Part shown: in pieces, positions 11,572 through 12,661 of the stretch
Position numbering within the stretch: position 1 is the stretch's first letter
Layout: every line of letters begins with the position of its first letter
Made by a program: the position numbers and the translations under genes
The notes under the pieces: model-generated
What the model was told of the DNA's origin: nothing
The model's database searches: none
The model's input: the letters and a program-made list of their open reading frames with translations, nothing else
Origin: a virus
DNA: 63,644 nucleotides
Reading direction: 5' to 3' (one strand)
Virus record (IMG/VR): IMGVR_UViG_3300050821_007791
Coordinates: 1 to 63,644 of that record

Positions 11572-11639
11572 ATGAACGAACGTAAGAGCGTAACGTCTTA
11601 GCGAGTGTTCTTAACGCCCTACGCAAGCGTGGGGAGGCG

Positions 11640-11992
11640 GCACAGACTCTCCCTATCCGAAGGGAGAGTCGTGCATTCGGCAATCGCGGGTCCCATCATC
11701 CGAACACAGTGACGACTAGCTCGCCCTTCCAGCCCTCGCGGGCTGTTCTTGGCTGGGGTCGGTCAGCGGTAATCCCATTACGGCGGTTCCATCTGACGGT
11801 CGCTTGAAGCTCTGTCGTGCCAACGCCGTCGCCCGACGTTGATTGCACGCATGGATATTCATTGGATGAAAGATCGGTCCCGTGGGCGGTCCTACCGGGG
11901 ACCACGGGCGGCGGCGCCTCATAGCGCATCCAAGGACGTGTGAGCGTCCTATCTCGCTCGGCCAGAGCCGCTATCTGCCCGGCTCTAGCGAG
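11640..11992. ncRNA. Densely structured non-coding region, candidate RNA
   Basis: No convincing gene covers this stretch. It holds a series of strong dyads: GACTCTCCCT/AGGGAGAGTC (11645-11670, 10 bp, 6-base loop); AGCCC/GGGCT (11731-11744); GTCAG/CTGAC enclosing GTAAT/ATTAC (about 11763-11798); CCCGTGG/CCACGGG (11879-11908); AGGACG/CGTCCT (11933-11950); and CTCGCT/AGCGAG enclosing AGAGCCG/CGGCTCT (11954-11992). None has a long T tract. The strand is not determined. It could be a structured RNA or part of an origin. Confidence 0.35.
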
Positions 11993-11994
11993 TA

Positions 11995-12023
11995 TTGACA
12001 TTTGACGTTACTTGTCGTATGTC
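11995..12023 (+). promoter_or_regulatory. Strong sigma70-type promoter
   Basis: TTGACA (11995-12000), exactly 17 bp, TATGTC (12018-12023). A transcript from about 12030 would meet a hairpin terminator at 12062-12106 before any gene. Confidence 0.6.
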
Positions 12024-12029
12024 TCTGCT

Positions 12030-12106
12030 CAGGAACGTGCGGCGGGCACCGAACGTATCCAGAAACCCACGACGGACCAAGAATCCTCGTGGGTTTCGCT
12101 TTAATT
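12030..12106 (+). ncRNA. Candidate small RNA or attenuated leader
   Basis: About 77 nt between a strong promoter and an intrinsic-terminator-like hairpin, without an ORF of its own. It either produces a stable small RNA or acts as an attenuator ahead of the release-factor-like gene at 12236. Confidence 0.4.
12062..12106 (+). terminator. Intrinsic terminator-like hairpin
   Basis: GAAACCCACGA (12062-12072) pairs with TCGTGGGTTTC (12087-12097), 11 bp with a 14-base loop, followed by the T-rich GCTTTAATT. Confidence 0.55.
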
Positions 12107-12187
12107 ACGTTGCACTATCCGCTCGGATATGGCAACATGAATCTCGTGTGGTCCTTTGTCATGTTGGTTCCCCATCGTCCACTTCGG

Positions 12188-12222
12188 GCGGGCGCCTTGT
12201 AAACGCCCGCTCGCTTTCTTTC
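12188..12222 (+). terminator. Second GC-rich hairpin with T-rich tail
   Basis: GCGGGCG (12188-12194) pairs with CGCCCGC (12204-12210) over 7 bp with a 9-base loop, followed by TCGCTTTCTTTC. It is only 14 bp ahead of the ATG at 12236, so it could be a terminator or attenuator in that gene's leader. Confidence 0.45.
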
Positions 12223-12235
12223 AGGCGCTCCACCC

Positions 12236-12661
12236 ATGGCACGCGAACTCATCTTCTCCGCAACGAAGAAAGACTTCCGTATTGATTACTTCTCCGGTAC
12301 AGGAGCGGGCGGTCAATACAGGAATAAACACCAGAACTGCGTTCGTATAACGCACATAGAAACGGGTATCGTAACTACTGGGCAAAATCAACGTAGTCGT
12401 GAGGCTAATACCAAAGAAGCCTTCCACAAGATGGCAGATCTCTTAGTTAAGCGCGTTCTCGGCGATCAACGTAAGGCACGTTGGCCTGGAAACGACGAAA
12501 CGATCCGCACGTACCATGCGCCCGACAACCGCGTGGTTGATCATCTGAGCGGGTTTCGCCAGCCATACGGCGTCGTCATTGGCTGTAAGCAGCTTGACGA
12601 GATGATTGAGGCGCGGCGAGCGGCGATGATCGAGCGCCGCGTCACTCAGGAGGACGTTTAA
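12236..12661 (+). CDS. Release-factor-like (RF-1 domain) GGQ protein
   Basis: 141 residues that match the catalytic domain of class I release factors and of ArfB/YaeJ-type rescue hydrolases. The GGQ motif is at 25-27 in GTGAGGQYRNKHQN, followed by VRITHIETGIVTTGQNQRSR, the usual 'V.i.H..TGI.v.cq..RSq' signature. There is no codon-recognition domain, so it should hydrolyse peptidyl-tRNA on ribosomes rather than read stop codons. The C-terminus ends RRAAMIERRVTQED and is only moderately basic. It sits behind two hairpins and a candidate small RNA, suggesting attenuation. It converges on the leftward gene ending at 12642 with a 20-base overlap. Confidence 0.85.
   Translation: MARELIFSATKKDFRIDYFSGTGAGGQYRNKHQNCVRITHIETGIVTTGQNQRSREANTKEAFHKMADLLVKRVLGDQRKARWPGNDETIRTYHAPDNRVVDHLSGFRQPYGVVIGCKQLDEMIEARRAAMIERRVTQEDV

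What the first reader, a model, noticed from the sequence alone, without database searches (positions are those of the whole stretch)
12236..12661. Phage-encoded GGQ ribosome-rescue-type hydrolase
The protein keeps the GGQ catalytic domain without a codon-reading domain, as in ArfB. It could free stalled ribosomes during infection, assist release at phage stops or sabotage host translation. The C-terminal tail that positions ArfB in the mRNA channel appears short and only moderately basic, which would alter function.
Basis: partly seen in the sequence, partly recalled or inferred. Interest (0 to 1): 0.55.

Follow-up and report, generated by a model that had tools for sequence, protein, structure and literature searches.

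The report
Phage stand-alone mini release factor
A bacterial virus carries a cut-down release factor, the protein that frees finished chains from ribosomes, that kept its cutting end but lost the part that reads stop signals; it belongs to a phage clade in which some sister genes hold stop signals that seem to control their own production.

Summary
The ORF is real (12236-12661, 141 aa; Pfam RF-1 68.5 bits against a cut-off of 35). It is not an ArfB: by profile, tree and fold it derives from RF1/RF2, having lost domains 1 and 2 but kept the GGQ domain and a remnant of RF domain 4. The ArfB tail is absent, not shortened. It belongs to a phage clade of stand-alone GGQ proteins (motif GGQ[YH]RNKHQNC) that is nearly absent from bacterial genomes. 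Most likely it is a codon-independent, ribosome-dependent peptidyl-tRNA hydrolase made during infection; no activity has been shown. The surprise lies in its sisters. One stand-alone gene (L017/L018) needs a +1 shift at CUU-UAG-C, with selection visible in both frames. The full-length sister release factors carry an in-frame UGA at one fixed Trp site in 48 of 48 loci examined, followed 8 nt later by a covarying stem-loop over which synonymous change is suppressed, in phages that otherwise use UGA as stop. In a 2016 review neither device was known in bacterial release-factor genes; Mimivirus uses both. The window gene itself has no in-frame stop.

The parts
12236..12661 (+). ORF of 141 aa: stand-alone RF-1 (GGQ) domain protein
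   Evidence: relatives
12308..12340 (+). catalytic GGQ loop and clade signature GGQYRNKHQNC (residues 25-35); E. coli RF1 reads GGQHVNTTDSA here
   Evidence: alignments; E. coli RF1
12398..12481 (+). long helix of the GGQ domain (residues 55-82 of the model)
   Evidence: AlphaFold2 model
12503..12658 (+). C-terminal segment (residues 90-141) homologous to the RF1/RF2 C-terminus (domain 4); predicted hairpin plus helix; the RF stretch before it (switch loop) is shortened

Best explanation
The ORF encodes a phage-specific mini release factor. It descends from a class-I bacterial release factor that lost domain 1 and the stop-codon-reading domain 2 but kept the GGQ domain and part of domain 4. 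I infer that it enters the ribosomal A site, places GGQ in the peptidyl-transferase centre and hydrolyses peptidyl-tRNA whatever codon is present, or when none is. The domain-4 remnant, not an ArfB tail, would be the part that reaches toward the small subunit. During infection this would free ribosomes that stall when host termination or rescue cannot keep up (cleaved mRNA or tRNA, scarce release factors). Shown: the ORF, homology, retained and lost domains, invariance of the catalytic loop, the phage clade. Inferred: activity, A-site binding, codon independence, benefit to the phage.
For: Pfam RF-1 matches 27 of 27 members of alignment A2. G23, G25-G26-Q27, R29, K31, H32, N34, C35 and R37 are invariant in those 27. 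The tail profile matches RF1/RF2 C-termini (L150 RF1 34.4 bits, L111 RF1 26.6, E. coli RF2 21.4, E. coli RF1 19.2) and reports no ArfB. The AlphaFold2 model (pLDDT 82.7, pTM 0.51) aligns over its whole length with RF1/RF2 on ribosomes (best Z 9.5, but rmsd about 9 A), and with ArfB (Z 6.4) and mtRF-R (Z 7.2) only over residues 3-81. There is one RF-1-domain gene per virus record in 31 of 31 and no widely shared neighbour (the commonest in 6 of the 53 regions compared, 52 loci and the window), which fits a one-component factor. Some relatives sit inside tRNA arrays (L017, L018, L101). Expression of a near relative is tied to a stop codon.
Against: No biochemical data. What places a protein without domain 2 and without a basic tail in the decoding centre is unknown. 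The model's low pTM means the tail's orientation is unsure. Nearness to tRNA genes is not significant: 6 of 53 loci within 300 b, 3.9 expected for other ORFs of the same loci, P=0.14. The window phage has no tRNA gene. The two tail types in the clade need not share one mechanism.
Confidence: 0.6

Rival explanations
1. It needs a partner: a host or phage protein fills the decoding centre or supplies the codon-reading part, as ArfA does for RF2 and MTRES1 may for mtRF-R (both from general knowledge).
For: The retained domain-4 remnant has lost its domain-2 partner surface; structures of RF2 with ArfA or BrfA are among the fold matches.
Against: No gene is shared widely near the family; the commonest neighbour, a VWA-like protein, is in 6 of the 53 regions compared and not in the window. 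A host partner is not excluded.
Confidence: 0.15
2. It sabotages host translation by releasing chains indiscriminately.
For: Lack of a codon-reading domain would permit it.
Against: Phage genes need the same ribosomes; in L017/L018 expression is restrained by a stop codon rather than maximised.
Confidence: 0.1
3. It is a true ArfB that senses an empty mRNA channel with its tail.
For: Same overall size and a stand-alone GGQ domain.
Against: ArfB model 19.2 bits against a cut-off of 100. Tail net charge -1 against +13. The ArfB tail residues R118, L119, K122, K129 and R132 (PMC3950681, passages) have no counterpart I could align. ArfB lies outside the clade in the tree.
Confidence: 0.07
4. It is a decaying fragment of a release factor without function.
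For: It is a truncated RF in size.
Against: Intact ORFs with an invariant catalytic loop in 27 diverse members at 32-56% identity to the window; selection keeps both frames of the shifted L017/L018 gene.
Confidence: 0.05

Closest known systems
Bacterial release factors RF1/RF2 (prfA/prfB)
   Same: GGQ domain, C-terminal domain-4 segment, best profile, structure and tree kin
   Different: domains 1 and 2 lost; GGQHVNxT(D/E)SA replaced by GGQYRNKHQNC; far below the equivalog cut-offs
ArfB/YaeJ and ICT1
   Same: stand-alone GGQ domain of similar length
   Different: no basic tail, no alpha-i insert in the model, distant in sequence
PrfH
   Same: RF-like GGQ protein lacking domain 1, rescue role (general knowledge)
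   Different: PrfH keeps a domain-2-like part; 46.7 bits against a cut-off of 166.65
mtRF-R / C12orf65
   Same: stand-alone RF-type GGQ domain used in rescue
   Different: matches only residues 3-79 of the model; its tail is a basic helix
PHROG 3122 'RF-1 domain peptide chain release factor' (mycobacteriophages Nanosmite, Cane17)
   Same: stand-alone phage GGQ protein; the 'short' members of this clade share its C-terminus
   Different: the window-type C-terminus is RF domain 4; mycophages read GGQNQNKRETG or GGQNRNKRDTA
Mimivirus R726 release factor (PMC3521657, passages seen)
   Same: UGA readthrough and CUU-UAG-C +1 frameshift, the two devices seen in sister genes of the window family
   Different: archaeo-eukaryotic class-I factor, unrelated protein; both stops in one gene

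Membership tests
RF-1 domain superfamily (Pfam PF00472) | score over the curated cut-off | tested here: met
   68.5 bits against 35
Class-I release factor RF1/RF2 | codon-reading domain 2 with a PxT or SPF motif | tested here: not met
   only 24 residues precede GGQ, and the upstream ORFs show no such motif
Class-I release factor RF1/RF2 | NCBIfam equivalog cut-off | tested here: not met
   65.1 against 423 bits (prfA), 54.6 against 370 (prfB)
ArfB/YaeJ | basic C-terminal tail with R118, L119, K122, K129, R132 | tested here: not met
   net charge -1 against +13; ArfB is not reported by the tail profile; residues from PMC3950681
ArfB/YaeJ | NCBIfam equivalog cut-off | tested here: not met
   19.2 against 100 bits
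ArfB/YaeJ | hydrolysis on non-stop ribosomes | not testable with these tools
   needs biochemistry
PrfH | NCBIfam equivalog cut-off | tested here: not met
   46.7 against 166.65 bits
PrfH | gene next to the RNA ligase RtcB | not tested
   no RtcB search was run; no widely shared neighbour was found
Phage stand-alone GGQ clade defined here | GGQ[YH]RNKHQNC signature and tree placement | tested here: met

The most novel reading that the evidence does not exclude
Phages own a separate clade of release factors, from domain-1-less codon-reading forms down to bare GGQ modules, and wire their synthesis to the state of host termination. The codon-reading forms are made by reading through one UGA helped by a stem-loop. 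At least one bare form is made by a +1 shift at CUU-UAG-C. The window gene is an ungated bare member that supplies codon-independent release. When host factors run short, the phage makes its own.
Probability: 0.4. Interest if true: 0.85.

Novelty: new variant of a known kind. Interest (0 to 1): 0.6.

Why it matters
Phage RF-1-domain proteins are annotated in bulk, but the searches made here showed me no tested function for them. This one shows that phages cut release factors down to a catalytic module by a route other than ArfB, so how such a module finds the A site is a testable question. The sister genes matter more: an in-frame UGA continuing in the same frame in a release-factor gene was proposed for bacteria but never found, and a UAG counterpart was called unknown (PMC5009743, passage). 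Both now have candidates in phages, matching the devices known in a giant amoeba virus.

Tried and rejected
Rejected or unsuccessful: ArfB membership. A recoded genome as the explanation for in-frame UGA in the sister genes: TGA ends 65 of 216 ORFs of at least 120 aa in 31 such loci, with a median in-frame run of 6 codons after TGA against 12.5 after TAA and 5.5 after TAG, and TGG makes 1.67% of codons. tRNA-array linkage as a statistical claim: P=0.14; two of the 55 loci given were dropped because the motif was not found. A partner gene: none shared widely. Close relatives of the window phage: none found by DNA, and none by the adjacent ATPase (6 stretches matched, none a relative). Known RNA in the 5' region: nothing at gathering level, and one chance-level match in the permissive search. 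Promoters: none found; terminators: no more than shuffles. An Rfam family for the readthrough element: none. L022 also needs a frame change near the same place, but it is a single sequence and may be an error. The long-clade member L225 was left out of the synonymous-site script because its upstream motif was missing. The pair count used 27 of the 33 contexts folded; L234, L236, L237, L238, L103 and L104 were left out, so the element is not shown for those six. Among six single folds of the element one is no better than shuffles (L239, z -0.5).

Full report
What is there. Window 12236-12661 (+) is an intact ORF of 141 aa. It matches Pfam RF-1 over residues 10-103 at E=6e-19 and no other Pfam family. 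The window is a virus record of 63,644 bases with tailed-phage genes such as terminase large subunit and DNA ejection protein, no tRNA gene and no Rfam match at gathering level. In the record the gene follows a stretch of about 660 bases without a clear ORF and points toward a block of minus-strand genes.

What it derives from. NCBIfam scores are prfA 65.1 bits, prfB 54.6, PrfH 46.7 and ArfB 19.2, none near a curated cut-off. The best solved-structure sequence matches are RF1 and RF2, and they include the C-terminal segment IRTYHAPDNRVVDH, which corresponds to RF domain 4 (the domain naming is general knowledge). A profile of the C-terminal part alone matches RF1/RF2 C-termini (34.4 to 13.2 bits in the five cellular RFs tested) and does not report ArfB; a profile of the whole protein scores the nine sister phage release factors 88-118 bits, cellular RF1/RF2 68-82 and ArfB about 10. 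The AlphaFold2 model (pLDDT 82.7, pTM 0.51) has the GGQ fold, one long helix (55-82), then a hairpin and a helix. It aligns from end to end with ribosome-bound RF1 and RF2 at Z up to 9.5, with rmsd near 9 A, probably because the two halves are angled differently, while ArfB, PrfH and mtRF-R align only over roughly the first 80 residues. So this is a release factor without domains 1 and 2, not an ArfB with a short tail.

Its family. Scans of viral contigs gave 48 relatives from the single sequence and 89 from an alignment, of which 80 were returned. One scan of 84,980 bacterial and archaeal species genomes with motif-based patterns found 2 relatives, both in metagenome-assembled genomes. The patterns require the clade's motif, so this shows the motif-bearing clade to be almost confined to phages, not that GGQ proteins are. 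The clade reads GGQ[YH]RNKHQNC where E. coli RF1 reads GGQHVNTTDSA. Two stand-alone forms exist: the window type, with an RF domain-4 tail (27 sequences aligned, 32-56% identity to the window), and a shorter type with another tail that it shares with mycobacteriophage 'RF-1' proteins (model). A third, long form keeps domain 2 with a PxT-like motif but lacks domain 1. In a tree of 73 GGQ cores (65 columns, many forks open) the window type groups with the long form at 99/94, and ArfB lies far outside. Each of 31 virus records has exactly one RF-1-domain gene. No neighbour is shared widely. Some relatives lie inside tRNA arrays, for example between tRNA-Thr and tRNA-Ile in L017 and L018 and between tRNA-Leu and tRNA-His in L101, but across 53 loci the nearness to tRNA genes is not significant.

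Stop codons inside sister genes. (i) In L017 and L018 (84% identical DNA; L019 repeats L017) the gene reads to CUU-UAG-C and continues in the +1 frame. Between them substitutions fall 3/0/19 on codon positions 1/2/3 before the site and 8/5/38 after it when counted in the +1 frame, so selection acts in both frames. No TAG was found in this motif among 8,164 bacterial prfB genes (PMC12421855, passages). (ii) Long-form release factors carry TGA at one fixed place, 28 codons after the RAAEGG motif, where E. coli RF1 has Trp: 45 of 45 loci recognised by the script and the 3 it missed, thus 48 of 48, several being near-copies or the same contig fetched twice (33 distinct contexts among the 45). In 3 of the 45 the upstream motif was not seen and the place is known only by its distance to GGQ. 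Other Trp codons within the gene are TGG, and in four loci the same gene also ends in TGA. TGA serves as an ordinary stop elsewhere in these phages. In 19 sequences at about 73% identity or more, synonymous diversity falls to 0.24 in codons 4-15 after the UGA, against about 0.5-0.8 in most other windows; two other windows, at codons 52-63 and 124-135, fall to about 0.36. A stem-loop begins 8 nt after the UGA. On 27 ungapped sequences 85.5% of cells pair, against 33-43% when slid, and 31 cells change on both sides against 11.4 in shuffles (0 of 500 as high). RNAalifold alone predicts 17 of these pairs. Six single folds give z from -5.9 to -0.5. No Rfam family matches the element. I read this as programmed readthrough. 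Trp is inferred from the alignment; selenocysteine was not tested beyond the missing Rfam match.

What this says about the window gene. It has no in-frame stop, so it is not itself gated. But its nearest relatives include genes whose synthesis seems to depend on slow termination, which fits a phage supplying its own release activity when host factors run short. That is inference. The alternatives are a need for a partner, sabotage, ArfB-like sensing and decay, with the weights given.

Literature. RF-1-domain genes, Pth and tmRNA in mycobacterial and phage tRNA arrays were noted as possible rescue factors (PMC5966550, passages). Huge phages carry RF1, RF2, RRF, tmRNA and SmpB (PMC7162821, passages). 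A survey of release-factor evolution contains no mention of phages by term search (PMC6514570). A review of recoding says that an in-frame UGA continuing in the same frame was never seen in RF2 genes and that the UAG counterpart in RF1 genes is unknown, except for a giant virus (PMC5009743, passage). That giant-virus gene uses UGA readthrough and CUU-UAG-C shifting (PMC3521657, passages). Eight full-text searches listed no paper whose title or abstract start described the phage cases; the library lacks most subscription journals and bioRxiv.

Noticed in passing
L017 5983-6379, L018 5983-6379 (also L019): Window-type GGQ gene split by CUU-UAG-C; the product needs a +1 shift, with purifying selection visible in both frames. 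The stop is UAG, not the UGA of prfB. No Shine-Dalgarno-like stimulator is obvious close upstream.
   Followed up: partly
L205-L242, L023-L049, L103, L104 (for example L028 3940-4022, L205 4100-4182): Long phage release factors with one conserved in-frame UGA at a Trp site in 48 of 48 loci, followed 8 nt later by a covarying stem-loop of about 62 nt with suppressed synonymous change; the phages use UGA as stop elsewhere. Candidate programmed readthrough in a bacterial-virus release-factor gene.
   Followed up: yes
window 11572-12235: About 660 bases without a clear ORF directly upstream of the gene, folding more stably than 20 shuffles (z -3.7), with several hairpins and no Rfam match above chance; possible structured leader or small RNA.
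   Followed up: partly
L022 5444-5800: Short-type member that also needs a frame change just after ..RDRISN; a single sequence, so an error is possible.
   Followed up: partly
L093 10239-10603: Phage contig with a predicted tmRNA gene and a stand-alone GGQ gene, about 3.9 kb apart.
   Followed up: no
L078, L080, L083, L084, L102, L108: A VWA-like protein gene (my naming, no family search) is shared by these six loci; in L080 it ends immediately before the GGQ gene.
   Followed up: no
L223 1133-1597: GOLLD RNA in the tRNA-rich region upstream of a UGA-containing release-factor gene.
   Followed up: no
L070 1513-1588 and L085 11712-11810: tRNA-like genes reported with four-base anticodons (ctta, tagt) in phages that carry window-type genes.
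   Followed up: no
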